From a virus: DNA of 44,040 nt. The notes under the pieces are model-generated. The model saw nothing but the letters and a program-made list of their open reading frames with translations, did no database searches and was not told where the DNA came from. The DNA is taken from the IMG/VR virus record IMGVR_UViG_3300043256_000189, positions 1-44,040 of that record; one strand, given 5' to 3'. Made by a program: the position numbers and the translations under genes. Shown piece after piece: positions 7,565-42,748 of this stretch (position 1 is its first letter; each line of letters opens with the position of its first letter).

Positions 7565-7679
7565 GGCACTCTCCTGTACTCGAAATCCGACTGCGAAAAA
7601 CTTTCGCCGAATTTGCGTCTCGACCTCACAACTCGCTGAAACCAAAGCACTTGCGAGCTGCCACGCCTCACGCGTTTCA

Positions 7680-7707
7680 TTTATATATGCATCGCGTCTG
7701 CGTGCAA
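7680..7707 (-). promoter_or_regulatory. sigma70-like promoter of the leftward operon
   Basis: On the minus strand TTGCAC (7707-7702), a 16-base spacer and TATAAA (7685-7680) give a good match to TTGACA/TATAAT. It points toward the first leftward gene at 7564 with a leader of roughly 110 bases. No better candidate is visible for this operon. Confidence 0.55.
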
Positions 7708-7711
7708 CTCT

Positions 7712-7762
7712 TTTGTTTTCAACGACTTACGCAATCGGCCATCCTAACTCATTGAAAACAAA
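7712..7762. repeat. TTGAAAACAAA operator-like repeats
   Basis: TTGAAAACAAA occurs inverted at 7712-7722 (minus) and 7752-7762 (plus), and again in direct orientation as TTGAAAACAAAG at 7923-7934. The first copy lies five bases upstream of the leftward -35 box. The spacing and location suggest sites for a regulator or an initiator protein. Confidence 0.5.
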
Positions 7763-8022
7763 GGACGCCGCGTGACGTGCCAATTCACGCCTAAATCAAT
7801 GTAACGCGCACGTAAAGCCTTTAGGATCAATACTTTAGGCTTCAGCCACCCCCCACCCCCCTATCACCTATAAAACGGGGCCACTCAGCCAGCTTTGGGG
7901 AATTTGGAATTCTAGTAACTTGTTGAAAACAAAGCTCTAGGCGTGTACGTGAGAGGGGAGGGAGAGATTTGGGGGGAAATATATGAGAAATATGGGGGTT
8001 AGGGCAACTTTTGCGACGATTT

Positions 8023-11542: not shown

Positions 11543-12742
11543 GTGGCTAGACTCTTCACCTGCGGCTTCGAGGAAAACAACTTCATTGAGACGATGTGGT
11601 TCCAGGCCAATGGCGCGGTTAGTTTTGTAACCTCGCCTGTTCACAGTGGAACTTATGCGCTTCGTACCAATCCAACTGCATCGTCTGGCAACGTTCGTAA
11701 GGATATACCTACCCAGATAACTACTGGGTCTGCATTTCTCCGTACCTACTTTCGTTTGGGTGCTATACCGGCTAGCGACACCAACCGCGTAATCCGCCTT
11801 CTCAACAGTAGTGTTGCTGTAACACAGCATGTACGCCAGCTTTCCAGCGGGAAGCTTCAATTATGGAACGATGTAAGTAGTGGCAGCGCGACCAGTACGA
11901 CCGTTCTGAGCATTGATACTTGGTATCGGCTTCAACTTCGAGTCTTGCTGAGCGACACGGTCGGCGTGGTTGAGCTGAAAATCTTTTTGGAAGATGCGAC
12001 GACAGCCCTTGAGACGTTGACAGTTAACGGAGGCGTGGACACGCTCAATGTGGGCATAAAAAGCTTCCTCTTGGGCCCTAGTGCCGGGAGCACCGCTGAT
12101 TTCTTTTTCGATGACGTGGCGTTCAACGATGACTCTGGTAGCTTTCAGAACACTATGCCCGGCCCCGCCAAGGTTTTCCTGCTAGAACCGAGCGGCGATA
12201 ACACCGTCACTTGGACAATAGATGGTGGCACTCCTGCCGCGACTCGGTGGGAGGGTGTGGACGATTTGCCTGGAGCACCCGATGATGGTGATACCTATAA
12301 CTCCTCCACCACCAATCAAACCGACAAGTTAGACCTGAGCAATCTGGGCGCGGAGGTAACGTCCGACGCCGATATCATCTTGGTGGATGTGTACGGTCGG
12401 CAAGGCTCGGATGGTACAGCAGGTACAAGAGTCATCGACTTCGAGCTTTGGGATGAGGCAGACAGCCAAAGTAGCCAGATGAGTATATCAGCAGACATCA
12501 ACGGCTGGCGGATTTGCGATACCGACGAACATCTGGTCTTTGACGCCGGCTCCCGCACCAAAGCGAATATCGACTCTTTCCGCGTGGGCTACAGTCGAAG
12601 TATAGGTGGTAGCAACGAAATCAGGATTACCGCGCAGTGGGTGAATGTAGAATGGATTGAAATGGCGGCTGCAGCCGGGCAGCCTTACTACATCCGAGAC
12701 AGTTACACAATGCCGGACTTTCTAGGGAATCAACAAGGGTAA
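11543..12742 (+). CDS. virion appendage protein with jelly-roll (concanavalin/LamG-like) domain
   Basis: 399 residues from GTG 11543, just after the preceding TAA. Residues 1-200 show a lectin-like jelly-roll pattern: LFTCGFEENNF at the start, HSGTYALRT, LRTYFRLG, WYRLQLRVLL and ADFFFDDVAF at the end, typical of LamG-like domains in phage capsid or tail appendages. The C-terminal half is a second beta-rich region. A probable carbohydrate-binding or adhesion role is inferred. It is the first gene of the receptor-binding module. Confidence 0.65.
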   Translation: MARLFTCGFEENNFIETMWFQANGAVSFVTSPVHSGTYALRTNPTASSGNVRKDIPTQITTGSAFLRTYFRLGAIPASDTNRVIRLLNSSVAVTQHVRQLSSGKLQLWNDVSSGSATSTTVLSIDTWYRLQLRVLLSDTVGVVELKIFLEDATTALETLTVNGGVDTLNVGIKSFLLGPSAGSTADFFFDDVAFNDDSGSFQNTMPGPAKVFLLEPSGDNTVTWTIDGGTPAATRWEGVDDLPGAPDDGDTYNSSTTNQTDKLDLSNLGAEVTSDADIILVDVYGRQGSDGTAGTRVIDFELWDEADSQSSQMSISADINGWRICDTDEHLVFDAGSRTKANIDSFRVGYSRSIGGSNEIRITAQWVNVEWIEMAAAAGQPYYIRDSYTMPDFLGNQQG

Positions 12743-12745
12743 ATA

Positions 12746-14155
12746 ATGGCAGGTTTTCCACCAAAAAAAGGCGGCGCTTTCATTTGGTACTTCTTCATCC
12801 GTGACGCGGATGGAGACCTCGTAACGGGCGCTACAGCACTCGACGTAGAATCTTCCGGCGATGGCGCAGCGTTCGGCGATGTCGCAGGTACGGAAGTGGA
12901 TGAGGGTGAGGGTTTATACAGTTGTCCTATCTCTACGGGCGAAATGAACTTTGATGTTGTAGCCCTGATTTGCAAAACTTCTACGGCTGATGCCAAGACC
13001 GCTGCACAGGTTATTTATACCAGCACTCGCCAACTGGACGACTTGGCCTTTCCAACCTCTAGCGGCAATAGCATTGATGTGACTGCTACAGGGGCGGTAG
13101 GCATCGACTGGGCCAATGTGGAAAGCCAGGCCACAGCAGTTGACCTTTCCGCCACGGATTTTCAATTAGTTGACACCACAACCACTAATACCGATATGGT
13201 CGGCACCGATTCAGCTTTGTTGGCTGCATCTGCCCCAACCAACTTCGGTGATTTGTCCATTACAGTCACAACCGGGTTGGTGGATGTTACCCAAACCGCT
13301 GCCGACAAAGTGTGGGGCACCGCAACTCGCGCTCTCACAGACAAAGTGGGCTTTACTGCTCTCTTAGAGGATGGTGCATCGGGTGGAACCTCAGCTGTCT
13401 TGACGCTAGAGCGGCTCATTATCGCTTCGGCTACGGCTACTGAGCCTGCTGTAAAATTGACGGGAAATACGTCGGGCGCGGGTTTGGTATCGACAGGTGG
13501 GGTGACAGGCGCGGGGATCAGCGCGGTAGGCGGCGCGACCTCCGGCGCAGCGGTTCTTACTACCGTTGTCTCTGGTAACAAGTTCGACGGTGATTTGTCC
13601 GGTTCAGTTGGTTCGGTTGTAGGGCATACGGCCCAAACTGGAGACAGCTTTGCAATCGTCAACAGCGGCACATTCGGCAATGCCCAACTTGTCCGTTCCA
13701 CCACTCCGGCCAATACGTTGGATGTCAACGCCACTGGAGAAGCTGGACTTGACCTCGACAACACTTCTGGGACGATTGCCGCTGCCCAGATTGCCACCGA
13801 TGCTATCACTGCGGCTAAGTTGGCCTCTGATGTCGCTGTGGAGATCAGAGATGCTATTCTGCCAGTACAGAACGTAGCGTTGAGCAACATCGAGTTCTTA
13901 TGGGTAGCTGCCAGCGACCACGTTACCCCTGTGACAGGGGCGAGCACGACATCTGTGAACCGCTCTATCGACGGTGGCGCGTTCGGTGCAGGTACAGGAA
14001 CGTTGGCAGAGGTGGGCAACGGGATCTATCAGTACGATGCTAGCCAAGCTGACATGAATGGTGGAATTATTACTTTCCGGTTCTCTGCTACTGGAGGGAC
14101 TCCGGGCGCGCCAGATGACGCTTTTGTAACCATCGTAACGGGTGCGGGCGTCTAA
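12746..14155 (+). CDS. fibre-like protein with beta-sandwich modules
   Basis: 469 residues. The N-terminal module (about 1-90) and the C-terminal module (about 380-469) share a pattern, G-x-Y-x-x-x-x-x-x-x-DMN...-F, of beta-sandwich units in baseplate or fibre proteins. In between are low-complexity beta-strand repeats, including VRSTTPANTLDVNATG and IDVTATGAVGIDWANVE, which recur in the 857-residue fibre at 16040. It probably forms a trimeric fibre shaft or adaptor. The stop overlaps the next start (TAATG). Confidence 0.6.
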   Translation: MAGFPPKKGGAFIWYFFIRDADGDLVTGATALDVESSGDGAAFGDVAGTEVDEGEGLYSCPISTGEMNFDVVALICKTSTADAKTAAQVIYTSTRQLDDLAFPTSSGNSIDVTATGAVGIDWANVESQATAVDLSATDFQLVDTTTTNTDMVGTDSALLAASAPTNFGDLSITVTTGLVDVTQTAADKVWGTATRALTDKVGFTALLEDGASGGTSAVLTLERLIIASATATEPAVKLTGNTSGAGLVSTGGVTGAGISAVGGATSGAAVLTTVVSGNKFDGDLSGSVGSVVGHTAQTGDSFAIVNSGTFGNAQLVRSTTPANTLDVNATGEAGLDLDNTSGTIAAAQIATDAITAAKLASDVAVEIRDAILPVQNVALSNIEFLWVAASDHVTPVTGASTTSVNRSIDGGAFGAGTGTLAEVGNGIYQYDASQADMNGGIITFRFSATGGTPGAPDDAFVTIVTGAGV

Positions 14156-14346
14156 TGACCATCTACCACCAGAACAATATCGCTGCCTTCGCGGGCAACC
14201 ACATCTTCTATTGGGTAGGCCAGCCGCTCTTTCACCAACGAATTTCGATAACTTCAGCAGCCGCTCCAGGCGGGCTTTTTCCCTTCCTATCGCGTAAGGT
14301 CTTGGTGGGTGGCATGTATGATCTAGGTGGGGATAGGATGGGCTAG
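14155..14346 (+). CDS. hypothetical 63-aa protein
   Basis: ATG 14155 overlaps the previous stop (TAATG). The protein is short, aromatic and glycine-rich (AAFAGNHIFYWVGQPLF) with no family recognised. It may be a small cap or assembly protein for the neighbouring fibre, or not functional. Confidence 0.45.
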   Translation: MTIYHQNNIAAFAGNHIFYWVGQPLFHQRISITSAAAPGGLFPFLSRKVLVGGMYDLGGDRMG

Positions 14347-14350
14347 ACTT

Positions 14351-14632
14351 ATGGAGACCTTCCCTATAGAACAAATTAGTTTTCTTTACACAAAACCAGC
14401 GTGTCCTGCTTGTGTTGCTGCAAGGGAACTTTTAACTAAAAATGACGAACTTTTTAGGGAAGTTCTAGTCGATAATCCCGCTACAGCTCTCGGAATCTCT
14501 ACACTTTTACAGAAGAATGGCGAATATTTTGTGCCGCTCCTTATTAGACCAAGAGTGGGTATCTTCCATTTAGCTAAGTTAACAAAGAATGGAGATTTTC
14601 AGTTCGTTAAACTGAAGATAGACCATGAGTGA
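14351..14632 (+). CDS. glutaredoxin/thioredoxin-like protein
   Basis: 93 residues from ATG 14351; an in-frame GTG at 14327 would add 8 residues. QISFLYTKPACPACVAARELL has the beta-strand plus CxxC active site (C18-P-A-C21) of glutaredoxins, and YFVPLLI carries the family's cis-proline position. It would exchange disulfides, perhaps in cysteine-containing fibre proteins or ribonucleotide reduction. Its A/T-rich codon use differs from the flanking fibre genes, hinting at separate acquisition. The stop overlaps the tailspike gene start. Confidence 0.65.
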   Translation: METFPIEQISFLYTKPACPACVAARELLTKNDELFREVLVDNPATALGISTLLQKNGEYFVPLLIRPRVGIFHLAKLTKNGDFQFVKLKIDHE

Positions 14633-16040
14633 TATTAATCCCTCTACCTGCTCCCAAGCCGATGTCCAGTCAGCCATAAACTCGGCTGTGGATGGCGACC
14701 GTGTGTTAGTACCGGCAGGAAATTGCACTTGGAGTTCACAAGTGAGCGTTCCCAATACCAAAGGGATTACTATCCAGGGCGCAGGCATTGACGTAACAAC
14801 AATCACCGATGACTTTACTGGTGACGCTGTCTTACGGATTAACATAGCTGGTGGTAATTCACTCTCACGGGTAACTGGTTTCAGTTGGGACGGGAGCGAC
14901 ATAAGTAAATCCGACCTTGGAGTCGTCAGGTTCAAAGGTGATGGGCTGAACAGCTTCCGCATGGATAACAACAAGTTCTTCAATTATCTACCACATGCTT
15001 TCACCGTCAACACGAGCACGGGCGAAGCTACCAGCGGCCTCGCTGACCACAATATCTTCAACGACAGTGGGAACAATGTCCAGAGCTATGTGGTAATCGG
15101 CCCGATGGTGCGGTCGGGAGAAGAGACCGACCCAGACACTAATTTCAACAAACCTTTCAGCCGCCCGATTGGAAAAGGCACCGCCGACAATGTATTTATC
15201 GAGGACAACACCTTCAACTATACCACCCAACTTGACCATGCTGGCACTACCCAAGGCGGGCAGCGCCTCGTGTTCCGTTTTAACACGTTGAATGGAATAG
15301 ACTATAACAATCACGGCGCTGACTCTGCGGCAACGCGCGGTGCCATCAATATAGAAGTATATGGGAACACCGGAGATAATACGTCGGGAGGCTTTCTCCG
15401 CACAGGTATTCTCCGCTCGGGTGTAGTAACAATGTTCAACAACGCATATACGGGCAACTATGGGAACTTGGTAGTTGCTACCTATCGTAGTTGTGTAAAT
15501 TCAAACGCCATCTGGGGAGGCCAATGTGACGGCACTAATTCTTGGGATCAGAATACAGGAGGCAGTGAGGGTTGGCGCTGCGTAGATCAGGTCGGAAGTT
15601 TCCTTGATGGTGGTCAAGGAGCCAACTTCTCGACCGTGCCCGCCTACTTCTGGAATAATACAGTAGATGGGACCCGCAAGGATGCTGTTGTTATAAACGC
15701 ACCCCCTTTCGACTGTGCTCGTCTGCTCCTGCATCTGATAGAGGATCGAGATTTCTACAATGAGAACCCGAGTTTTGATGGGACTAGCGGCATCGGCGTC
15801 GGGCCAATTGCAAGCCGACCGTCAACCTGCACGCCTGAAGTTGGTTATTGGGCAACCGACGAGGGAGAGTGGAACAGTGAACAGGCGGGTGCTGATGGGC
15901 GGCTCTACAAATGCACAGCTACCGATACATGGACGCTCTACTACACCCCCTACACCTATCCACACCCATTGCAAGGCGCGGGAAATGGAAATGGTGCATC
16001 CTGGCCTTGGCATGAAGCAGCCGGAGGCGATGAAATCTAA
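14625..16040 (+). CDS. parallel beta-helix tailspike, pectate-lyase-like
   Basis: 471 residues. The N-terminus STCSQADVQSAINSAVDGDR followed by VLVPAGNCTW is the usual cap of pectate-lyase-like right-handed beta-helices. Repeated short strands with N and G turns follow (DNNKFFNY, DHNIFND, EDNTFNY, RFNTLNG, YGNTGDN, FNNAYTGN), each a helix rung. The C-terminus (SWPWHEA) is unlike the helix. Such proteins bind and often cut surface polysaccharide. Catalytic residues cannot be assigned by eye. Confidence 0.75.
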   Translation: MSDINPSTCSQADVQSAINSAVDGDRVLVPAGNCTWSSQVSVPNTKGITIQGAGIDVTTITDDFTGDAVLRINIAGGNSLSRVTGFSWDGSDISKSDLGVVRFKGDGLNSFRMDNNKFFNYLPHAFTVNTSTGEATSGLADHNIFNDSGNNVQSYVVIGPMVRSGEETDPDTNFNKPFSRPIGKGTADNVFIEDNTFNYTTQLDHAGTTQGGQRLVFRFNTLNGIDYNNHGADSAATRGAINIEVYGNTGDNTSGGFLRTGILRSGVVTMFNNAYTGNYGNLVVATYRSCVNSNAIWGGQCDGTNSWDQNTGGSEGWRCVDQVGSFLDGGQGANFSTVPAYFWNNTVDGTRKDAVVINAPPFDCARLLLHLIEDRDFYNENPSFDGTSGIGVGPIASRPSTCTPEVGYWATDEGEWNSEQAGADGRLYKCTATDTWTLYYTPYTYPHPLQGAGNGNGASWPWHEAAGGDEI

Positions 16041-18613
16041 TGGCGAAACAAGCTCTTAAAAAGGGTACTACTTCAAAGCGACTGGCTATCTTTATCCAAG
16101 ATAGTTCCCAAACTACAGGTGAGGGCCTAACGGGTTTATTGTTTAGTAGTTCAGGTTTATCTTGGTATTATTGGCGCGAAGATGAAGGAAATGCAGATGG
16201 CACTGCGGTTACACTTGTTACTGCTACACGAGGTACTTTTGCATCTGGGGGTTTCATTGAGAAAGACGCCACAAATCTACCAGGATTCTATGAAATTGGT
16301 ATTCCAAACGCTGCAATAGCAACGGGAGCTAGTTGGGTCGTTATGCAGCTCAAGGGAGCCACCAATATGGCCGAATTGACCCTTGAAGTCCAGCTTACCG
16401 ACAATACAGTTAAAGATGTCTTTGATGAAGTAGCACACGCGGATTACGGGCTTGCGCAGCTTGTCCGATCAACAACTCCGGCTAATACACTTGACGTAAC
16501 AGCTACCGGCGCGGCGGGCATTGACTGGGCTAATGTTGAGGGTCAAGGAACGGCGGTTGACCTGTCGGCCACAGACATCCAACTCGCTGACACCACTACA
16601 ACCCTGACCAATAAAACTGGATTCTCCCTCGCCTCAACTGGGCTTGACGCGATAAGCCAAGCAGCAACAGGCATGGTTGAGATTGCCAAAGCTGTTTGGG
16701 ACAGGGTTCTCTCTGGAGCCACCCACAACATCGCTACCTCTGCTGGCCGTCGCCTACGAGGAATCCAGGAGTTCCAAGGTTATGAGAATGGTGCGGTCTG
16801 GATTGACACAGTTGACGGTACGGCAGGGACGACCAATTTCGAGAACGGAACGGTTGAAAACCCTGTAAATAGTATCGCCGATGCGAATATACTGGCCGCT
16901 TCACTCAAAATCGAGCGGTTTGAAATCGCCCCAGGTAGTTCCATAACGTTCGGGGCTTCACAGAACAATCAAACATTCAGTGGGCACAACTGGACACTCG
17001 CACTAGGCGGACGAGACATTGCGGGCAGCGGGTTCTTCGGTGCGACGGTTTCTGGTATTGCGTCCGGTACTGGTACGCTTCAGATATTTGACAAGTGTAT
17101 CCTAAACGCTATGTCACACATTAAAGGAACCCATCTTATTGAGTGTGGTATTGCAGGAACGCAAACGATTGTTGAAGCAGGTGACTACTTCGCAGACCGC
17201 TGCCACTCCGCTATTGCGGGAACAGCTACACCAACATGGGACTTCGGTGGGGCATTAGCTGCGTCCAACCTTAGTTTCCGAAACTATAGTGGAGGGATTG
17301 AAATCCAGAACATGGGGGCCGGAGCTGGCTCCTACACTATGTCGCTTGAAGGAAGGGGGCAGCTCATCATCAACGCAAACTGTTCTGCGACCTCTACCGT
17401 GGCGATTCGTGGCCTCTTCACTATCACTGATAACGCTGGTGGTGCAGTTACATTGTCGGACGATGCCCGATTTACCCTCTCCGGAACTGCTGATGCTAAT
17501 TGGGATGAAGTCCTCACTATCGGCACTCACGATGTCGCTGAGTCCACTGGACGCAGGCTACGCAACCTACAAGAATTTGAAGGTTACGAGGACGGGGCAA
17601 TTTGGATTGACACCGCGAACGGTGTAGGAGGGACTACCGACTTTGAGAATGGCACTGTCGGGAATCCCACCAACTCAATCGGAGACGCAAACACACTGGC
17701 TACCAACCTTGGGCTTAAACGGTTTCGTGTCGCTCCGGGCAGCTCCATCACCTTTGTCGCCGCTCAAAGTAACCAAGTATTCATCGGCGATGCTTGGACT
17801 CTGGCGCTTGGGGGTCAGTCTCTCGTTGGAACCACAATCATAGGCGCGACTGTAAGTGGTGTTGCCAGTGGCGCTGGTACCACTCAAGCCTTTGAGAAGT
17901 GTCACCTGATGGCTACCTCTCACATCAAGGGAACTTACCTCATCGAGTCCGCTATTGAGGGGACGCTGACCATTGTCGAAGCAGGGGACTTCTTTATAGA
18001 CCGTTGTTACTCAGCAATAGCAGGAACCGCCACGCCAACATGGGACTTCGGTGGAGCACTAAATGCTTCCAACGTCAGCTTTAGGAACTACAGCGGCGGC
18101 ATCGAGATTCAAAACATGGGTGCTGGCACTGGCAGTTATAATATGTCCCTTGAGGGGCGTGGGCAACTTATCATTAACGCAAACTGCTCCGCGACTTCCA
18201 CTGTAGCAATTCGCGGTCTCTTCACTGTGACCGACAATGCGGGCGGTGCAGTCACGCTATCCGACGCCGCCCGGTTTGCAGAAGACCAGAGCATCACAAC
18301 CGTCACGGGGAATGTGGATGGTTCTGTAGCTTCCATAGGCGCAGGCGGGATTGGTTCAGGCGTTATTGCGGCTGCCGAACTCATCAACATCGCAGACGGC
18401 TGCCTAGATCGACGCCTCGATCTCGGTACCGACTCTGGCGGAAACACCACCACTAGTCGCACATGGCGTCAGGCCCTTCGCACGGCTCGAAACCGCGTGG
18501 CTATCTCAGGCGGCACAATGACCGTGTACGAAGAGGACGATACAACTTCTGACTTTACTGCCGCCATTACCACCACAGCAGGCGATCCTATCACTGAGTT
18601 GAACCCCGCATAA
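16040..18613 (+). CDS. 857-aa fibre protein with a 268-residue tandem duplication
   Basis: ATG 16040 overlaps the tailspike stop. The N-terminal beta-sandwich module (1-130) resembles modules of the 12746 gene, and VRSTTPANTLDVTATGAAGI follows at about 143. Residues 220-487 and 488-755 are two tandem copies of one beta-helix-like domain, each starting W-D-x-V-L and containing TATPTWDFGGAL and SLEGRGQLIINANCSATST. A short C-terminal domain (about 790-857) ends the chain. It is probably a receptor-binding fibre. Confidence 0.7.
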   Translation: MAKQALKKGTTSKRLAIFIQDSSQTTGEGLTGLLFSSSGLSWYYWREDEGNADGTAVTLVTATRGTFASGGFIEKDATNLPGFYEIGIPNAAIATGASWVVMQLKGATNMAELTLEVQLTDNTVKDVFDEVAHADYGLAQLVRSTTPANTLDVTATGAAGIDWANVEGQGTAVDLSATDIQLADTTTTLTNKTGFSLASTGLDAISQAATGMVEIAKAVWDRVLSGATHNIATSAGRRLRGIQEFQGYENGAVWIDTVDGTAGTTNFENGTVENPVNSIADANILAASLKIERFEIAPGSSITFGASQNNQTFSGHNWTLALGGRDIAGSGFFGATVSGIASGTGTLQIFDKCILNAMSHIKGTHLIECGIAGTQTIVEAGDYFADRCHSAIAGTATPTWDFGGALAASNLSFRNYSGGIEIQNMGAGAGSYTMSLEGRGQLIINANCSATSTVAIRGLFTITDNAGGAVTLSDDARFTLSGTADANWDEVLTIGTHDVAESTGRRLRNLQEFEGYEDGAIWIDTANGVGGTTDFENGTVGNPTNSIGDANTLATNLGLKRFRVAPGSSITFVAAQSNQVFIGDAWTLALGGQSLVGTTIIGATVSGVASGAGTTQAFEKCHLMATSHIKGTYLIESAIEGTLTIVEAGDFFIDRCYSAIAGTATPTWDFGGALNASNVSFRNYSGGIEIQNMGAGTGSYNMSLEGRGQLIINANCSATSTVAIRGLFTVTDNAGGAVTLSDAARFAEDQSITTVTGNVDGSVASIGAGGIGSGVIAAAELINIADGCLDRRLDLGTDSGGNTTTSRTWRQALRTARNRVAISGGTMTVYEEDDTTSDFTAAITTTAGDPITELNPA
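16697..18304 (+). repeat. exact-length tandem duplication, two units of 804 bp
   Basis: Unit 1 is 16697-17500 and unit 2 is 17501-18304; both begin TGGGA and align without a net length change. Long identical protein runs in the second half of each unit are encoded largely with different synonymous codons, so the duplication is old and the protein has been held constant by selection. Confidence 0.85.
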
Positions 18614-25275: not shown

Positions 25276-25392
25276 ATGAAAGTAAAGGAGAAGCGAATCT
25301 GCTTTCTGTGCGACGGCGAACTGGAGGCACGGACACCGTGTACTTGGGTTTGCAAAAGGTGCGGACAGAAGGTTGAGAGTTGTAGTGATTGA
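25276..25392 (+). CDS. 38-aa zinc-ribbon micro-protein
   Basis: ATG 25276 follows TTAGGAGAAAGA. Cysteines C9/C12 (CFLC), C22/C26/C29 (CTWVCKRC) and C36 form two candidate metal sites in a very short chain, with a basic N-terminus. It overlaps the glycosyltransferase start. Likely a zinc-binding accessory protein, function unknown. Confidence 0.6.
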   Translation: MKVKEKRICFLCDGELEARTPCTWVCKRCGQKVESCSD

Positions 25393-26014
25393 CTGCTTCG
25401 TTGCCACGCTAGACCTAACGCCAGGACGAATAGCTATGTCCCGGCGAGTGATTAAGAGATTAAGGGAAGAGCCGGGGTTGAGACTAACACTGATGGATGC
25501 GGGTTCCACGCCGGGACAACTCGCACATTTCAGGGAGTTGGGCCTCAACCTCGTGCCTCACCCCCGCGCGGGCAGCACACACAGGCGGTATCTCCTAGCG
25601 GAGACCCTCGCTACCAGCGAATACTACTTTCTAGTTGACGACGACTGCATACCCAAGACCGAGAACTGGTTGCGGGCATCCACGGATGCAATGCAGGGAC
25701 ATCCACAGTTCGGCATTCTAGGGCTGCGGAAAGAGAGTTGCGATTACGCATATTCTCATGGATTTCAAGACAACGAAGTGCGGGCAGTACAGGGAGTTGG
25801 AGGCTTTCTACTTATCAGAAAGGGCTGTCGGACCTCTCCCTTCCGCGTGCCAGTAGTTGTAGACCACAAGTACAACCGACAGAACGATTGGGATTACTGT
25901 CAGGCTGTTAAGAATGGGGGCTATGAGGTAGGGCAATTGCAGAAGGTCTACTTCGAGCACCTGGATGCAGGGGGCCAGGAAACGTGTTATATTCCGGAGA
26001 TTGTAAATGACTAG
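25373..26014 (+). CDS. glycosyltransferase (GT-A/GT2-like)
   Basis: 213 residues; starts at TTG 25373 or GTG 25385. YYFLVDDDCIPKTENWL carries the DDD (89-91) metal/nucleotide-sugar motif of GT-A enzymes, and NDWDYCQAVKNGGYEV matches the acceptor-side helix of GT2 enzymes. It transfers a sugar from an activated donor. With the neighbouring nucleotidyltransferase and second glycosyltransferase it may modify the capsid, the DNA or host surface glycans. Two GCCGGGACA words face opposite ways inside it (25437 and 25510). Confidence 0.7.
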   Translation: MRVVVIDCFVATLDLTPGRIAMSRRVIKRLREEPGLRLTLMDAGSTPGQLAHFRELGLNLVPHPRAGSTHRRYLLAETLATSEYYFLVDDDCIPKTENWLRASTDAMQGHPQFGILGLRKESCDYAYSHGFQDNEVRAVQGVGGFLLIRKGCRTSPFRVPVVVDHKYNRQNDWDYCQAVKNGGYEVGQLQKVYFEHLDAGGQETCYIPEIVND

Positions 26015-26438
26015 AGCCTACATCGGGGGCACTTTCGACCTCTTCCACATAGGCCATGTGTTCTTGCTCTCACGTGCCAAATCTGAGTTTGATGAAGTAG
26101 TTGTAGCGTTGAACACCGATGAGTTCTGCGAGAGGTACAAGGGCGAGCGACCTATTATGGAGTTATCGGAGAGGGCAGCAGTAATGGCTGCTTGTCGGTA
26201 TGTGGATATGGTGGAGGTGAATGATGGCTGTGAAGATTCGACTCTAGCCATACTTCGTGTCGCCCCAACCCATATCATCCACGGCGACGACTGGAAGGGG
26301 GAGAGTTTGAAGAGGCAGATGGGCCTAACAGACGCCTTCCTTGTGGACAACGGAATTGAGCTGGTTTACTTTCCTTATTCAAAGCGGGCTTCAACGAAGA
26401 ACATAAAAGAGAGGGTATGCCGACTTACGACATCCTGA
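26007..26438 (+). CDS. nucleotidyltransferase of the cytidylyltransferase family
   Basis: 143 residues. The N-terminal AYIGGTFDLFHIGH has the H-x-G-H active site (H14-H17) of the glycerol-3-phosphate/cholinephosphate cytidylyltransferase superfamily; RYVD and HGDDW are at the usual positions. The ISTT-like C-terminal loop is ASTKNIKER (128-136). It would make a CDP-activated alcohol or sugar phosphate. It overlaps both glycosyltransferases, forming one cassette. Confidence 0.8.
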   Translation: MTRAYIGGTFDLFHIGHVFLLSRAKSEFDEVVVALNTDEFCERYKGERPIMELSERAAVMAACRYVDMVEVNDGCEDSTLAILRVAPTHIIHGDDWKGESLKRQMGLTDAFLVDNGIELVYFPYSKRASTKNIKERVCRLTTS

Positions 26439-27100
26439 TCCCCACAGCAGGGCCGATAGAAGACATAATTAAGTGCCTAGAATCTGTAAAAAGGAACAGC
26501 CAGTCTTATAGAATCATTTGGCTGAGTAACGGGGCACCCTACGAACTGAAGTGTGCAGCCAAGGCAGCACTTCAAGGAATGCCCCATATCGCACTAGAGG
26601 TTGACAAGAATCTCGGTCCAGCTAAGGGACACAACATTCTCTTAGCCTACAGTACCGCACCCTACGTCGTCATTCTAAACGACGATACAGAAGTTGTACC
26701 GGCATGGCTGGAAGGTATGCGAAGGCTCTTCGATAAAGAGAGGGTGGGTATTGCCGCATCCTGTGTGGACAACGGAGGGGGCTGGCAGCTAGCAAGGTCG
26801 GCAGGCGCGCCCAAGAACGGCGAATTGTTTGACGTTCCAATGATTTTCCCATACTGCGCTATGTTCTCACGAGACTGTTTAGAGAAGGTGGGCTACTTCT
26901 CAGAAGAGTATTTTTCAGGATGGGATCAAGACTACTGCTTTCGTGCTAGAAAGCTGGGCTTCCGCTTAGCGGTAGACCTCAGAACCGTTATCAAGCACCG
27001 TTGGCACGGAACCATCAACACTTTCTCCGGCAGCGACCGCGACGCCTCTTACAAGAAGGACGTTGCTTTGCTAAAGAAATACCACGGAGAATTCTACTAG
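26417..27100 (+). CDS. glycosyltransferase family 2
   Basis: 227 residues. YDILIPTAGPIEDIIKCLES is the Rossmann-like N-terminus of GT2 enzymes; YVVILNDDTEVVPAWL holds the DxD-type metal site (D89-D90). GWDQDYCFRARKLGFRL and HRWHGT (194-199) are the catalytic ED/Q-like and C-terminal motifs. It probably adds a sugar using a nucleotide-sugar donor. It overlaps the nucleotidyltransferase by 22 bases, so the three genes are probably co-translated. Confidence 0.82.
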   Translation: MPTYDILIPTAGPIEDIIKCLESVKRNSQSYRIIWLSNGAPYELKCAAKAALQGMPHIALEVDKNLGPAKGHNILLAYSTAPYVVILNDDTEVVPAWLEGMRRLFDKERVGIAASCVDNGGGWQLARSAGAPKNGELFDVPMIFPYCAMFSRDCLEKVGYFSEEYFSGWDQDYCFRARKLGFRLAVDLRTVIKHRWHGTINTFSGSDRDASYKKDVALLKKYHGEFY

Positions 27101-35635: not shown

Positions 35636-38600
35636 GTGCCCCAGGAGCCCCTACAAGATTACTTAGAAAAACTCGCGATTCCTCGTGAGCTGAAGGCGCA
35701 AGCTTGGGATGCATATAATGCGTCTAAGACATCTGAAGACTTTCAAAAAGCATTTAAAGATTTAGGTATCCCACAGGAGAGTAAGGCGGATCTCTGGGAT
35801 ATGAAGTTCCGTCCCGTCCCCCAACCTACTACCATCCCCCCTCCCGCTCCCCCAAGCGGCCCACCTGCCCAACCGGGCGCACCCACAACCAAACCATCCC
35901 TTATACCTACCCGACTCCCTGGCTTCCCTGAAATCAGGCAGGCTGGACGTGTGCCTGTTACCGTTGGTGGGCCACGCTTCGGACCTCCAGGAGAGATTGA
36001 GAAAGTACGCAAAGGTTTCCAGAAGGCATTTGAAACTCCAGCCATCCCCGCAGGGAAGTTCGTTCGAGATATGCGGGCCAAGGTGCCTTTCTACAATGCA
36101 GAGGAGGATATGATTATCTTGCCCGGAAATCAACATCCTCATTTAGAAGCGTTTCTTAACACTGTTTTCGACACCGCCCAAGTCGGGGGGGACGTGTTTG
36201 CGGGTTTGACAACATTGACGAACGCAGGACTAATCGGAGCCTTGATCGTTGCTCCAACGCTGGGGATTCCAGCTGCAATAACAAAATTCGGTCTAGCGGG
36301 ACTTTCCGCATCTATGATTGATTCAACCTCTAAAGAGTTGGGACACTCTTATGAGATTTACAGACGGGAGATAGATGCTGGTAGAAACCCCTTAGCATCT
36401 AGAGAATTTGGTCAGTCATTAGCGAATGCGACAACTACTGCCACTTTTGCAACCTTAGCCGGTAGAGGTGCGTTTCATCCCCGTGCAGGAGAGTTGGGAA
36501 TTAAAGCGGCTTGGGAGCGTTATAAGGTAGAGCGGCCCGATGTGCCGAGAACCAAGGCGCAGCTTGAGGCAGAACTTAAGGCCGAGCAAGCTGGAATTCC
36601 TCCTCCACAAGTCGTGCCTGCTCCTGCGATTCGCGCTATGGAAGCGGCAAGCCGAGAGGGGGTTAAGATACCTACCCCTATTGACATTAGTCAGGTGTCT
36701 GTCCCGAAAGCACCACCAGAAGAGAAGCCGCCAGCCGTCGATCTAACTCCCCCTAAAATCGATCTTACTCCTCCCTCCTTCCCTACAACTACCCCTACCA
36801 TTCAAAAGATGCAGGCCGAACTCCATCGCCTAAAGGCAGCACAGAAGCGGCTACCCACGCCCGGTGAGCGTAAGGTAATCGACCGTTGGATAAGTGAAGT
36901 CCAAGAGATGATGGAGCAGCGAAGAGCGGGGACGTTAGGACTTGTCTCCCGGCGCGGAACCGTTGCACCAGACATCAACGCCCGAGAGGTTCGTGAGGCT
37001 CGCGGGGCCATGCCCGCCCGACTTCCTACTACAGGAGAAGTAACCCAAGTCAGCGACATCCCAAGCCCCAATGAATTCGTCCCACGGAAAGCTGCGAAAG
37101 TTGTCCCGGCGAAGAGTAAGCAAGCTCAGGCTAGGGAGGCGGAAACTCGAAAGCTTAGTGAAGCACTCGCTGCAGACTTCGCAAGGTGGCGCAACCCCGC
37201 TATTTCCGAGAAGGTCAAGAATGAGACTATCGCAGGGCCGCTTCATAAGAAGTTCCTATCCTACGCAAAGGCAGTCATCCGCAAGTCCTATACGAAGAAG
37301 GTATCAGACTACCTGATCGACGAGGGAATTGCAGAACTCGCTGTTAGTAAGGCGATGCTAAAGGCCAAGACTTTCAAGGGCAAGGGCAAGGTGACTACTT
37401 GGTTTTGGGGATTCGTTAGGAATGAAGTAGCGAACGCCCGACGCAAGGCCGAGAGGCAACAGAAGCGAGAGGTAGGTATCCGTGGACCCGAAGAAGAGTT
37501 CACAGTAGGCACGGTTGCTGAAGAGAAGGTTGCAGTACGGGGTCGAGCGGAAATCCAAGACGAGTACCTCCGAGTCATCAAGGGAATGGAAGATGAGTTG
37601 GCAGAAGTGGCGGGCCCCGAAGCTCTTGAACAGGTTCGTGGCGTAGCGAAGCAATTTGATAAGGCAGAGGATATTGGGACTCGCCTGGGCAAGCACGAGC
37701 AGAACCTCCGCAACGCTATCCTTGAGGCTAAGCGTAAGAAGGCCGTAGCCCCAATAGAGATTCCGCCCGAGGAAGCGCCCGTAACTGACATCAAGCTCCC
37801 AATGCCCTCAAGAGCGGAGCTGGGTACTAAGCGGATTGATGCTCTCGTCAAGAAGATGGAGCGACTCGGCTTCGGGAAGGCAGTAAAGGAGATTCAAGCT
37901 GCCCTTCCCATGGATGTCTCAGTTGAGTTTTGGACTGACAATTTCCGAGCGGCGCTTGCCAGATACGTAGAACTAAAGGCACAGCAGGATCCGAGGGCGC
38001 TAGAGCACGCGAAGTTCGCCGCAGCTAAGAAGCCAGGACAACGACGTAGGGAGGGGGGATTTATCACCCTCGGAGAGATGCTCCCTCAGCGCATCAAGGA
38101 GTTCATCAACAAGCGAGCTGCTGCTGTAGAGGAGAAGAAGGCTAAGCTCAAGGCGTTCCAGGACCGCGTAGCTGAGCTAGCTACGAAGGGGCCGACCTTC
38201 TATAGCCACCTAGAGCGAGTAGTAGAGGCTAGGATGCCCAACAGGGCTGCTCCTGAGCAGATAGGGGCCTTGGTCCGCAAGGCGGGAGTTACGCTCGCTG
38301 AGGCCAAGTGGAGTGGCTTAGACGACCTCCTAGCGCTAGCTAGGAAGGAGAAGCGTCCTGTTACCAAGCAAGAGGTTCTGGATACGCTCAGGAAGAATCA
38401 GATTACCATTGAGGAGGTCGAACTAGGGCAGCGAAAGTTAGAGCCTAGATTTAGTACGGTAATTCGGGAGCAAACAACCTATTCCGACCAAACTTCCACC
38501 AAATATCGTGCTATATCAAACGAGTTGATTCGCGCGGTGAGAGAAGAACTACGTGAACGCGGAGAACCTACTGATGAGGCTTTTGAAATTGTTGAAGAAG

Positions 38601-41600
38601 GGCTTAGCTATAAAGCGGGAACTGGACCGGGAGATGCGTTAATAGGCTTGGTCGGCAAGAAAGCACAAAGCTTTGGGCATGCCGCATTACTCGCTAAGAA
38701 AGCAGCTGAAGCACAGCTGGCCCGTACTATTGAGTCGGCCAAAGTAGGAAGAGACCCTGAGTATTCCAAGTACCAACTCCCCGGAGGCGAAAACTACAAG
38801 GAGCTGTTGCTGAAGCTTCCTGAGAGAGAGCCACAGGGAGCGGTGGCTGCGGAAGCGGCAAGAGCGGCTGGTAGGGAACTTACGCAGTTCGAACACATTC
38901 TCAGAGAGAAATATCCCGAAGGACGTAGAATATTCCAGGCTCAAGATTTAGAAATTCTTGACAACCCTACAATAAAAAGGCTCCTTTCTCCAGAGGATCT
39001 CACTACCTATGGGAGGTTAATAGAACGCTTCGAGACGGCTGAAGATCTTGTGGATATGGGTGGCGACTTCCGAGGAGGCCACTTCGAGGGCGAGTCCAAC
39101 ATTCTAGCCCACATCCGCTTCAATGAGCGGGTGGACGTTCAGGGAAAGCGGGTGTTGTTTGTTGAGGAGATGCAGAGTGATTGGGCACAAGCAGAACGGC
39201 GGCCCGGTATTGCTGTAGATGCTCCTCCAACCCCCTTCCTAAAAGACTGGCACGAACTCTCCCTCAAGCGCATGCTCCGCTACGCAGCAGAGAAGGGCTT
39301 CGACAAGTTGGCTTGGACTACTGGGAAGCAGCAAGTAGCGAGGTACGATCTCGCTAAGGTCCTGTCCACTATTGAGTACAAAGAGAATCCTCTCAAACCG
39401 GGACAATACAAGATCACTCCGATGGACTTGAAAGGGAATCCTATACCCAATCTAGACCACACGTTTGCTAAAGAAGATCTCGCACCTACCTTCGGAAAGG
39501 AAATCGCAGAAGCGATCACACAGAAAAAGGGAGCGCCTATTCGCGGTCTTGAAGCTGAAGGTCTTCCTATTGCAAGTTCCGGCTGGCGAGAACTCGACGT
39601 AAAAGGCATCGAAGTAGGAGGTAAGTCTCTTCGAGCACTCTACGACAACATCATCCCGAACTACTTGAACAAGTATGGGAAGAAGTGGGGAGCTAGAGTT
39701 CGGACTATCAGAATCCCTGTCCCGCCTGAACCAAACTTTCCGGATACCCGCCCCGTCCATGCCATAGACATCACCCCCGAAATGAAGCGCTCTGTTCTCA
39801 AGGGCCAACGCCTCATGGGAGGGTTCGGGCCAACCATCCGTGGTAAGCTGAACCTCGGGGAGAAGATCAAGGAAGCCGTCTCAAGACTCCAAAACCGGCA
39901 ACTCCCAGTAGTCTCCAAGCGCTACCAAGAAATCCTCCAGGCCCGGAAGGACGCTAAGGGGCCTACCGCCCGCTTCTCAGAGCGGCTGGCGATGCTTCCT
40001 AGAGCGTTCGTCCGCCGATTCTACGACCGTTTCATCAACATACGAATAGCAGAGAGGGCAATAGAGAAGTCCATCGGTCGCAAGCTCGATCCAGAGACCG
40101 AAGCCGCCTACCTCGAAGCCCGCCTCGTCTTTGGTGGAGAGGGCGGACCTATGGAAGCGGCGGCAATTCGTTATGGAAACGCTGCAACTGTTGTCAATCG
40201 GTTGGGCCTCGGAGACTACTTCACTCAATATCTTGATCTATTTGCCTACCGCCGAGGGATTGCGAACATCGTGCGAAAGCGTACCGAAGCTCTTCGTCTG
40301 GCAACCGAAGCTAAGGGGAACTACGACGAAGTTGCGCGACAAGTTACTGAGGGAGAGATTACAGTTAAACAGGGTGCAGCTAAACTTGGTAGATTCCGAA
40401 AGGAGGCAGCAAGGTATCGTCGTCAAGCCAAAGAATTCGGCACCATGCTAAAGAAGCGCGAAGTCGTCCCCAAGAAGTACGACCTCATGACGATTTCGAA
40501 AGAGCTGAAGGATATTGAGGGCAACCTAAGTAAACAGCAGTTCGCAGAGGTCAAGAAGGCAGCTGACGCTGTCTGGGCGCTAAACCGAAAGGCGTGGGAC
40601 TTGGCCCACAGAGAAGGAATTATCAGTAACGAGGCACACGCAACGGGTATCGCTCTTGGTAAAGAGTACGTTCCACTTTGGCGAATCATAGAGAAGGCTA
40701 AGGAGGCAGGGCACTTCGGCGATACCAACTTACAGTTACGTCAGCAAAAGATCCTCCGGGCGTTTAAAGGATCTGCATTGGAGAATCTTGACCCACTAGA
40801 GACATCCCTCTTACAGCACATTGAGACAATTCGAGAAGCGGGTCGAAATCGTGCAGCTAAACGTCTTATCCAACTTCGAGATATTGATCCCGAAGGTTTC
40901 GGTCGAGATGTCCGTGAATTAAAATTCAGGGAACAACCCCCACCCAATATGGGCCAAATCTCCTACTTCGAGAACGGTAGGGTCAGAAGCTTCGCGGTTC
41001 CTAAGAGTCTAGCACAGGCACTAAATGAACTCAATGCGACGGATGTTGGGTTCATCGCAGACACCCTTCTTAAAATTCCTAAGCGCTGGTTTCAACTGGG
41101 CGCAACTCAAGCTAACCTCGCGTTTGCTATCCCGAACGTAGCACGAGACGTACAGCGGATGGCGATGATCTCCGAAGCCCGAGTCCGAAACCCTAAAGAT
41201 GTAGCTCTCCTCGCTAAAGACTGGTCTGAAGCATTTTTTAGCGTAGTTATAAAGAATGAACGGTACCTTGAGTTCCTCGAAAGCCGTGCAGCCTACTCCA
41301 CACTTCAAAGAAACATTACTCCAAAGACGTTTCTATTTGGAGGGATAGAGAAAGTGGCTCCCCGAGATCCCTTTAGTAGAGCAATTCGTGCTCCATTCCG
41401 TCCTCTCTCCTTCACTATAGATAAGATAGAAAAACTCAACAGCGCCTTTGAAGAGGCGACTAAAATGACAACCTACCGAGAACTTCGAGCGAAGGGTGTA
41501 GGAGTCAAAGAGGCCGCCTTCGAAACACGGCGGTTTGGAGGTTCTCCAGACTTCGCAAGCGGAGGTGCTTACTCCCGAGAATTAAACCTCCTCTGGATGT

Positions 41601-42748
41601 TCTTCAACGCTAATATTCAAGGAACGGTGGGGAATATCTCTCGCCTTGCTACTAACCCAAAACTCTTGGGAACCATGATGACTACCGTAACGGCTCTAGC
41701 CCTAACCCTTCACAAATGGAACATGCAATTCCTAGACGACGAGGGAAACCCTGAGATATATCGTGTCTCTCAAACAGAGCGTGATCACAACTGGGTTATC
41801 CTCCGTAACTCAAGAAAGCCAACTAGCGCAGGAGCCACTCGAAATCGCTACTTTAAGATCCCTAAGCCCCACGTCGTTCGAATGCTAGTTAACCCTATTC
41901 AAGAAGGACTTGTACAACACAGCAAGGGGCAAATGCAGAAAGGAAAACTCGCGCTAAGGGCTATCTCTGACCTAATCCCAGGGCAGTTTGATTTGGAGAA
42001 GCACGGAATAGGACCAGGATTAGGCTACGGCGCACTGAGCAGCCTGAATCCTCTCCCTCGGACCATTATAGAAGTAGGTGGCAATATAAGCGGCTTCCGA
42101 GGTGGCGCTCCTATCGAATCTCGTGCTATGGAAGGCATAGAGGCTAGGGAACGTTACACCTATACAACTAGCGAATTTGCAAAGTGGCTAGGGAACGTTA
42201 CGAATAAGTCTCCTGTCAAAATCCAGTACACAATAGAAAGCTTCCTCGGTGGTTTGGGACAGATGGGGCTCGACGTAGCTGACTTGGCAATGGGCCGGGA
42301 TTTCTCCCCACTACCCCTAGAGGGAGATGAAGCAATAGCTAGGACTCCTGTAGTAGGCCGGATCGCCAAGCGCTTCGTAGGCTCGACAATGGACGAGGTT
42401 GTACAGGACCTTGAGCGAGCCTTCTACGAGGTATCAGATAAGGCCAACGAGGTCAAGAAAACTACAGACTGGAAGAAGAAAAAGTATGCAGAGACGCCGG
42501 AAGTAGCTATCGACTACGCTATAAAAGATCCTGAGAAGCGACTTCTTTACCGTATGCAACCCAAACTCGCTGAGATTAGAGTGGAGTTGTCGGAGATTCG
42601 GGCTCGTCGAGAGCGAGTAATTATGAGCAAGAAATTGTCCATCGAGCACAAGCGAAGGCTTCTCTCAATGCTATACAAGGAGCGCGTTCGAACCTTAACC
42701 AATGCAATTAGAGTTCTTACGTTAAAGCTAGACGGACAAGGACAATAA
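35636..42748 (+). CDS. 2370-aa polyvalent internal virion protein with sigma-70-like module
   Basis: Starts at GTG 35636. Regions by residue: helical N-terminus 1-60; Pro-rich linker 60-90; hydrophobic 182-228; Pro-rich 300-390; sigma-70-like region 2 at 540-612 (FLSYAKAVIRK, DEGIAELAVS, TTWFWGFVRNEVANARR) and region-4-like 643-703 (DIGTRLGKHEQNLRNAILEA); phage polyvalent-type domain with FYSHLERVVEARMPN near 852-932; HFEGESNILAHIRFNERV to YLNKYGKKWG, 1143-1356; LPD38-like part around 1455-2122 (LAFAIPNVARDVQRM at 1825, a hydrophobic helix at 2010). Likely ejected with DNA. Polyvalent proteins of other phages carry such domain strings; an embedded sigma module is unusual. Confidence 0.72.
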   Translation: MPQEPLQDYLEKLAIPRELKAQAWDAYNASKTSEDFQKAFKDLGIPQESKADLWDMKFRPVPQPTTIPPPAPPSGPPAQPGAPTTKPSLIPTRLPGFPEIRQAGRVPVTVGGPRFGPPGEIEKVRKGFQKAFETPAIPAGKFVRDMRAKVPFYNAEEDMIILPGNQHPHLEAFLNTVFDTAQVGGDVFAGLTTLTNAGLIGALIVAPTLGIPAAITKFGLAGLSASMIDSTSKELGHSYEIYRREIDAGRNPLASREFGQSLANATTTATFATLAGRGAFHPRAGELGIKAAWERYKVERPDVPRTKAQLEAELKAEQAGIPPPQVVPAPAIRAMEAASREGVKIPTPIDISQVSVPKAPPEEKPPAVDLTPPKIDLTPPSFPTTTPTIQKMQAELHRLKAAQKRLPTPGERKVIDRWISEVQEMMEQRRAGTLGLVSRRGTVAPDINAREVREARGAMPARLPTTGEVTQVSDIPSPNEFVPRKAAKVVPAKSKQAQAREAETRKLSEALAADFARWRNPAISEKVKNETIAGPLHKKFLSYAKAVIRKSYTKKVSDYLIDEGIAELAVSKAMLKAKTFKGKGKVTTWFWGFVRNEVANARRKAERQQKREVGIRGPEEEFTVGTVAEEKVAVRGRAEIQDEYLRVIKGMEDELAEVAGPEALEQVRGVAKQFDKAEDIGTRLGKHEQNLRNAILEAKRKKAVAPIEIPPEEAPVTDIKLPMPSRAELGTKRIDALVKKMERLGFGKAVKEIQAALPMDVSVEFWTDNFRAALARYVELKAQQDPRALEHAKFAAAKKPGQRRREGGFITLGEMLPQRIKEFINKRAAAVEEKKAKLKAFQDRVAELATKGPTFYSHLERVVEARMPNRAAPEQIGALVRKAGVTLAEAKWSGLDDLLALARKEKRPVTKQEVLDTLRKNQITIEEVELGQRKLEPRFSTVIREQTTYSDQTSTKYRAISNELIRAVREELRERGEPTDEAFEIVEEGLSYKAGTGPGDALIGLVGKKAQSFGHAALLAKKAAEAQLARTIESAKVGRDPEYSKYQLPGGENYKELLLKLPEREPQGAVAAEAARAAGRELTQFEHILREKYPEGRRIFQAQDLEILDNPTIKRLLSPEDLTTYGRLIERFETAEDLVDMGGDFRGGHFEGESNILAHIRFNERVDVQGKRVLFVEEMQSDWAQAERRPGIAVDAPPTPFLKDWHELSLKRMLRYAAEKGFDKLAWTTGKQQVARYDLAKVLSTIEYKENPLKPGQYKITPMDLKGNPIPNLDHTFAKEDLAPTFGKEIAEAITQKKGAPIRGLEAEGLPIASSGWRELDVKGIEVGGKSLRALYDNIIPNYLNKYGKKWGARVRTIRIPVPPEPNFPDTRPVHAIDITPEMKRSVLKGQRLMGGFGPTIRGKLNLGEKIKEAVSRLQNRQLPVVSKRYQEILQARKDAKGPTARFSERLAMLPRAFVRRFYDRFINIRIAERAIEKSIGRKLDPETEAAYLEARLVFGGEGGPMEAAAIRYGNAATVVNRLGLGDYFTQYLDLFAYRRGIANIVRKRTEALRLATEAKGNYDEVARQVTEGEITVKQGAAKLGRFRKEAARYRRQAKEFGTMLKKREVVPKKYDLMTISKELKDIEGNLSKQQFAEVKKAADAVWALNRKAWDLAHREGIISNEAHATGIALGKEYVPLWRIIEKAKEAGHFGDTNLQLRQQKILRAFKGSALENLDPLETSLLQHIETIREAGRNRAAKRLIQLRDIDPEGFGRDVRELKFREQPPPNMGQISYFENGRVRSFAVPKSLAQALNELNATDVGFIADTLLKIPKRWFQLGATQANLAFAIPNVARDVQRMAMISEARVRNPKDVALLAKDWSEAFFSVVIKNERYLEFLESRAAYSTLQRNITPKTFLFGGIEKVAPRDPFSRAIRAPFRPLSFTIDKIEKLNSAFEEATKMTTYRELRAKGVGVKEAAFETRRFGGSPDFASGGAYSRELNLLWMFFNANIQGTVGNISRLATNPKLLGTMMTTVTALALTLHKWNMQFLDDEGNPEIYRVSQTERDHNWVILRNSRKPTSAGATRNRYFKIPKPHVVRMLVNPIQEGLVQHSKGQMQKGKLALRAISDLIPGQFDLEKHGIGPGLGYGALSSLNPLPRTIIEVGGNISGFRGGAPIESRAMEGIEARERYTYTTSEFAKWLGNVTNKSPVKIQYTIESFLGGLGQMGLDVADLAMGRDFSPLPLEGDEAIARTPVVGRIAKRFVGSTMDEVVQDLERAFYEVSDKANEVKKTTDWKKKKYAETPEVAIDYAIKDPEKRLLYRMQPKLAEIRVELSEIRARRERVIMSKKLSIEHKRRLLSMLYKERVRTLTNAIRVLTLKLDGQGQ

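What the first reader, a model, noticed from the sequence alone, without database searches (positions are those of the whole stretch)
37253..37746. Sigma-70-like region 2 and region 4 embedded in the giant polyvalent protein
Residues 540-612 (FLSYAKAVIRK, DEGIAELAVSKAMLKA, TTWFWGFVRNEVANARRK) follow the sigma-70/ECF region 2 pattern, including the F/TW...RNE-x-x-x-RR end. Residues 643-703 end in DIGTRLGKHEQNLRNAILEA, matching the region-4 helix-turn-helix. Together they look like a complete small sigma factor spliced into a protein likely injected with the DNA. If functional it would be a virion-delivered transcription specificity factor, analogous in logic to the N4 virion RNA polymerase. I know of no described example of this arrangement.
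Basis: partly seen in the sequence, partly recalled or inferred. Interest (0 to 1): 0.85.

Follow-up and report, generated by a model that had tools for sequence, protein, structure and literature searches.

The report
Sigma-factor region 2 inside virion protein
A giant phage protein that is probably injected into the host carries a divergent piece of a sigma factor, the bacterial part that tells RNA polymerase where to start; relatives of this phage keep that factor as a separate small gene, so the phage may deliver a transcription-takeover module with its DNA, although only half of the factor is clearly there.

Summary
Residues ~511-615 of the 2370-aa protein (window 35636-42748, +) are a real, divergent sigma-70 region 2. 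Pfam gives E=3.3e-4 for that stretch. The best evidence comes from relatives: 10 of 36 records of phages related by portal or terminase encode a separate 170-245 aa ECF-like sigma factor. A profile of these 10, window excluded, picks the giant protein out of 8708 ORFs at E=1e-9 (region 2 only; hhalign 95%, P=3.9e-8). Shuffles never come near the score. The region-4 half is not supported: no family or profile match, and about 1-2% of shuffles score as well. The core-binding D-x-x-Q motif is altered too. Of 132 ORFs >=1000 aa examined, only this one has the domain. The protein has LPD38, is the last gene of the virion cassette before the integrase, and keeps a conserved C-terminal half in related podo-like phages; virion location is inferred. 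Best reading: a region-2 module of the group's own phage sigma became fused into an ejection protein and meets host RNA polymerase at entry. A virion-delivered sigma-like factor is plausible but unproven; a repurposed helical domain is the main rival. I found no described precedent; it is a new variant of the polyvalent ejected-protein theme.

The parts
35636..42748 (+). Giant multidomain (polyvalent) protein, 2370 aa, last gene of the virion cassette before the integrase; probably an ejected internal virion protein
   Evidence: LPD38 E=1.1e-16; phrog_9854; same gene order in related phages
37166..37480 (+). Sigma-70/ECF region 2 domain (aa 511-615), homologous to the N-terminal half of separate phage sigma factors of related phages
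37319..37345 (+). Region 2.2 equivalent, DEGIAELAV (aa 562-570), where ECF sigmas have AED-x-x-QE: core-binding residues altered
   Evidence: alignment; position
37394..37426 (+). Region 2.3/2.4 motif TTWFWGFVRNE (aa 587-597), the best-conserved sigma signature
37562..37744 (+). Stretch proposed as region 4 (aa 643-703), HTH-like by eye at AEDIGTRLGKHEQNLRNAILEA; not supported by any profile
36998..37105 (+). Proline-rich linker (aa 455-490) in front of the module
37745..37825 (+). Proline-rich linker (aa 704-730) after the module
38183..39835 (+). Middle domain (aa 850-1400, motif VEEMQSDW) shared with many large phage proteins
39944..42601 (+). Conserved C-terminal half (aa 1437-2322) with LPD38 (aa 2043-2220), shared with the syntenic giant protein of related phages

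Best explanation
Shown by sequence: aa ~511-615 of the giant protein descend from region 2 of a sigma-70/ECF-like sigma factor, and the nearest kin found are small sigma factors that related podo-like phages encode as separate genes. Inferred: the module became fused into the variable N-terminal half of the phage's large ejection protein, between proline-rich linkers; the protein is packaged, enters the cell with the DNA, and the module docks on the clamp of host RNA polymerase in the manner of sigma region 2, biasing the polymerase towards the incoming genome or displacing host sigma before any phage gene is expressed. Because region 4 cannot be shown and the region-2.2 motif is altered, it is more likely a partial, sigma-like RNA-polymerase-binding module than a complete promoter-recognition factor.
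For: Homology. Blind search of 398 Pseudomonadota genomes with the segment: 8 hits, and all 6 that match the region-2 part are sigma factors by an ECF profile. Phage sigma profile without the window: E=1e-9 among 8708 ORFs. hhalign 95%, P=3.9e-8 over aa 511-613. Phmmer with aa 1-860 brings up the relatives' separate sigma genes as the only matches in this stretch. Those genes are sigma factors: three of five tested exceed the curated cut-off of TIGR02937. The tree puts the window domain with the phage sigmas at 94/94, just under the usual threshold. AlphaFold without an alignment gives four helices with pLDDT 79; in PDB the two best Foldseek matches of the longer model, and the best TM-scores of the short one, are sigma factors, all non-significant. 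Ejection role: LPD38, position after an internal-virion-protein homologue (phrog_511), conserved C-terminal half and gene order.
Against: No region 4. AED-x-x-QE reads DEGIAEL, although several separate phage sigmas have also lost parts of it. Only one record shows the fusion: 131 other ORFs >=1000 aa lack it, so conservation under selection cannot be tested. Virion location is inferred only. The record is incomplete at its right end, where relatives carry the separate sigma, so a normal sigma may exist as well.
Confidence: 0.5

Rival explanations
1. A former sigma region 2 has been repurposed or is decaying inside the ejection protein: a helical spacer or DNA-binding element without RNA-polymerase activity.
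For: Missing region 4 and altered core-binding motif; long branch in the tree; N-terminal halves of the related giants vary and lack the domain.
Against: The region 2.3/2.4 signature (F-x-G-x-x-x-x-T-T-W-F ... R-N) is well kept, the frame is open, and the stretch still scores 31-37 bits against sigma profiles.
Confidence: 0.33
2. A complete and active virion-delivered sigma factor; its region 4 has diverged beyond detection.
For: An HTH-like stretch lies where region 4 would be, and it is the best region-4 score within the protein; the TIGR02937 match runs through both halves.
Against: The region-4 score is reached by about 1-2% of shuffles; hhalign 0.3%; AlphaFold without an alignment shows no clear HTH there.
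Confidence: 0.12
3. Chance or convergent resemblance of a helical segment to sigma region 2.
For: Foldseek matches are not significant; the Pfam score is below the curated cut-off.
Against: Independent profile tests at E=1e-9 and P=3.9e-8, a shuffle test, and the blind genome search all point to sigma factors.
Confidence: 0.05

Closest known systems
Separate ECF-like sigma factors of related podo-like phages (L233-L242)
   Same: Region 2 homologous over its whole length, also divergent in region 2.2; same phage group by portal, terminase and capsid
   Different: They are separate 170-245 aa genes, and those that could be placed lie well away from the giant gene on the opposite strand (in three records, about 12-33 kb); most keep region 4; the window domain is inside a 2370-aa protein and lacks a recognisable region 4
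phiEco32 gp36 / SU10 gp32 ECF sigma factor of C3 podophages (PMC4281155)
   Same: Phage-encoded ECF-type sigma factor in a podovirus
   Different: Separate gene made during infection for middle and late promoters; not part of an ejection protein
Polyvalent proteins with LPD domains (Iyer et al. 2017, PMC5512222)
   Same: Giant multidomain protein with an LPD domain, encoded with virion genes, predicted to enter with the DNA; carries varied modules that help to establish transcription
   Different: The paper describes N4-type RNA polymerase and ADP-ribosyltransferase modules; the word sigma does not occur in its main text
N4 virion RNA polymerase
   Same: Same logic: a transcription component delivered in a giant virion protein
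   Different: N4 delivers a complete single-subunit polymerase; here at most a sigma fragment that would need the host enzyme

Membership tests
Sigma-70 / ECF sigma factors | Region 2 homology | tested here: met
Sigma-70 / ECF sigma factors | Region 4 helix-turn-helix | tested here: not met
   only an HTH-like stretch by eye
Sigma-70 / ECF sigma factors | Core-binding region 2.2 motif (AED-x-x-QE) | tested here: not met
   DEGIAEL at aa 562-568; separate phage sigmas are variable here too
Sigma-70 / ECF sigma factors | Three-dimensional fold of sigma region 2 | tested here: inconclusive
   four helices, best TM-scores to sigma factors (0.52), E-values 7-9
Sigma-70 / ECF sigma factors | Binds RNA polymerase core and directs promoter-specific initiation | not testable with these tools
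   -
Polyvalent proteins (LPD family) | Very large multidomain protein with an LPD domain | tested here: met
   LPD38 E=1.1e-16, aa 2043-2220
Polyvalent proteins (LPD family) | Encoded in the virion gene cassette | tested here: met
Polyvalent proteins (LPD family) | Packaged and injected | not testable with these tools
N4-type virion RNA polymerase proteins | Single-subunit RNA polymerase module | tested here: not met
   Pfam, PHROG and NCBIfam scans of the whole protein show none

The most novel reading that the evidence does not exclude
A temperate podo-like phage delivers a sigma-type RNA-polymerase specificity or hijack module inside its ejection protein, so that host RNA polymerase is redirected at the moment of DNA entry, before any phage gene is expressed.
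Probability: 0.35. Interest if true: 0.85.

Novelty: new variant of a known kind. Interest (0 to 1): 0.57.

Why it matters
Phages are known to inject whole polymerases (N4) or enzymes that modify host polymerase (T4 Alt), but I found no described case of an injected sigma-type module. If it works, transcription takeover could begin with a host-polymerase adaptor carried in the virion, and phage sigma factors would have a second, pre-expression role. The fusion also gives a testable function to one of the many unassigned parts of giant ejection proteins.

Tried and rejected
Homologues of the segment by exact-peptide scans of IMG/VR and by DNA patterns for TTWF[WYF]G..RN(E): none real; the pattern hits lay in unrelated frames. 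Related giants from viral and bacterial contigs share only aa ~850-1400 and parts of the C-terminal half, no sigma part. tblastn against named phages found one weak hit, a sigma factor on a bacterial-looking contig. Separate sigmas in two more distant phages (L082, L083) do not group with the window domain. Foldseek was not significant for either model. An insert of odd base composition: none seen.

Full report
Observation. The giant ORF at 35636-42748 (+) is open over 2370 codons and holds the quoted peptides at the quoted places. The two halves of the claim behave differently.

Region 2 is real. Pfam's Sigma70_r2 is the only match in this part of the protein, at 17.5 bits (E=0.0035, below the curated cut-off), and rises to E=3.3e-4 when aa 519-620 are scanned alone. 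Among NCBIfam matches of the segment, all but one are sigma factors. A genome-wide search with the family gives E=3.5e-5. Used blindly against 398 Pseudomonadota genomes, the segment gave eight hits; the six that align to the region-2 part are all sigma factors by an ECF profile, and the other two hit the linker part only.

The strongest evidence came from relatives. Portal and terminase searches brought in phages with 43-69% identity in these proteins and the same order of virion genes, giant gene and integrase. Ten of 36 such records carry a small separate gene of 170-245 codons that matches sigma region 2. Of five tested, three exceed NCBIfam's curated cut-off for sigma70-ECF, and an alignment of nine of these proteins together with the window segment finds solved ECF sigma structures at E down to 7e-11. 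A profile of the ten proteins, without the window sequence, detects the giant protein at 37.2 bits, E=1e-9 among 8708 ORFs, aa 515-615. hhalign with nine of them gives 95% and P=3.9e-8 over aa 511-613. A region-2 profile scores 35.8 bits while 2000 shuffles reach at most 7.5. In a tree the window domain falls with the phage sigmas and one odd bacterial sequence (94/94, just under the usual threshold; its branch is long, so its exact place is unsure). A single-sequence AlphaFold model of aa 525-614 has four helices and pLDDT 79; its best TM-scores in PDB are to sigma factors (0.52; 2.9 A for Thermus sigma-A), but the E-values are not significant.

Region 4 is not supported. Sigma70_r4_2 has no match at E<=10, the stretch alone matches no sigma family, a region-4 profile gives 2.4-3.2 bits with 19-37 of 2000 shuffles as good, and hhalign finds nothing. 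The peptide AEDIGTRLGKHEQNLRNAILEA does resemble the helix-turn-helix by eye and lies roughly where region 4 would be, so a decayed or very divergent region 4 is possible. In region 2.2 the bacterial AED-x-x-QE reads DEGIAEL. That D and Q contact the beta' clamp is my own knowledge of sigma-70, not tested here. Several separate phage sigmas also depart from this motif.

Setting. The protein has LPD38 near its C-terminus, lies behind an internal-virion-protein homologue, and its C-terminal half is conserved in the syntenic giant of related phages while the N-terminal half varies. The sigma module (aa 491-703, 2.3% proline) sits between proline-rich linkers (14% and 22%). None of 131 other ORFs of at least 1000 aa in the collected loci has the domain. 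In relatives the separate sigma gene lies on the opposite strand, about 12-15 kb beyond the giant gene where both were placed on one side (G454, G484) and farther away in G463. This record ends 137 bp after the integrase gene, so a separate sigma gene may exist in the missing part.

Mechanism. The fusion is shown at the level of sequence homology. Packaging, ejection, docking on host RNA polymerase and redirection of transcription are inferred. Iyer et al. 2017 argue that phage polyvalent proteins serve to establish transcription at entry, and describe N4-type polymerases and protein-modifying enzymes for it (PMC5512222); sigma is not mentioned in the main text. Full-text searches found no virion-packaged or injected sigma factor, but most subscription literature is not held. 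I therefore rate it a new variant of a known kind, with one known instance and a functional claim that remains open.

Noticed in passing
window 7636-7934: Repeated element TTGAAAACAAAG: two exact copies (7752, 7923), one inverted copy with 1 mismatch (7711) and one with 2 mismatches (7636), all in the divergent intergenic region; looks like operator sites of a temperate-phage switch.
   Followed up: partly
L233-L242: Related podo-like phages carry a family of divergent ECF-like sigma factors as separate genes, several below standard annotation cut-offs.
   Followed up: partly
window 38183-39835: Middle domain of the giant (motif VEEMQSDW) occurs in very large proteins (up to 6817 aa) of many viral contigs and a few bacterial genomes; no Pfam name.
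   Followed up: no
window 11543-18613: Four large ORFs (399, 469, 471, 857 aa) between terminase and portal with no Pfam match; only the first has PHROG matches, of unknown function.
   Followed up: no
window 25373-27100: Two ORFs with weak matches to phage glycosyltransferase families between the major head protein and the lysis genes.
   Followed up: no
BFVD A0A6J5T7D3: A 1414-aa LPD-containing phage protein is the seventh Foldseek match of the 251-aa model (E=0.29); possibly another giant with a similar segment, or just helices.
   Followed up: no
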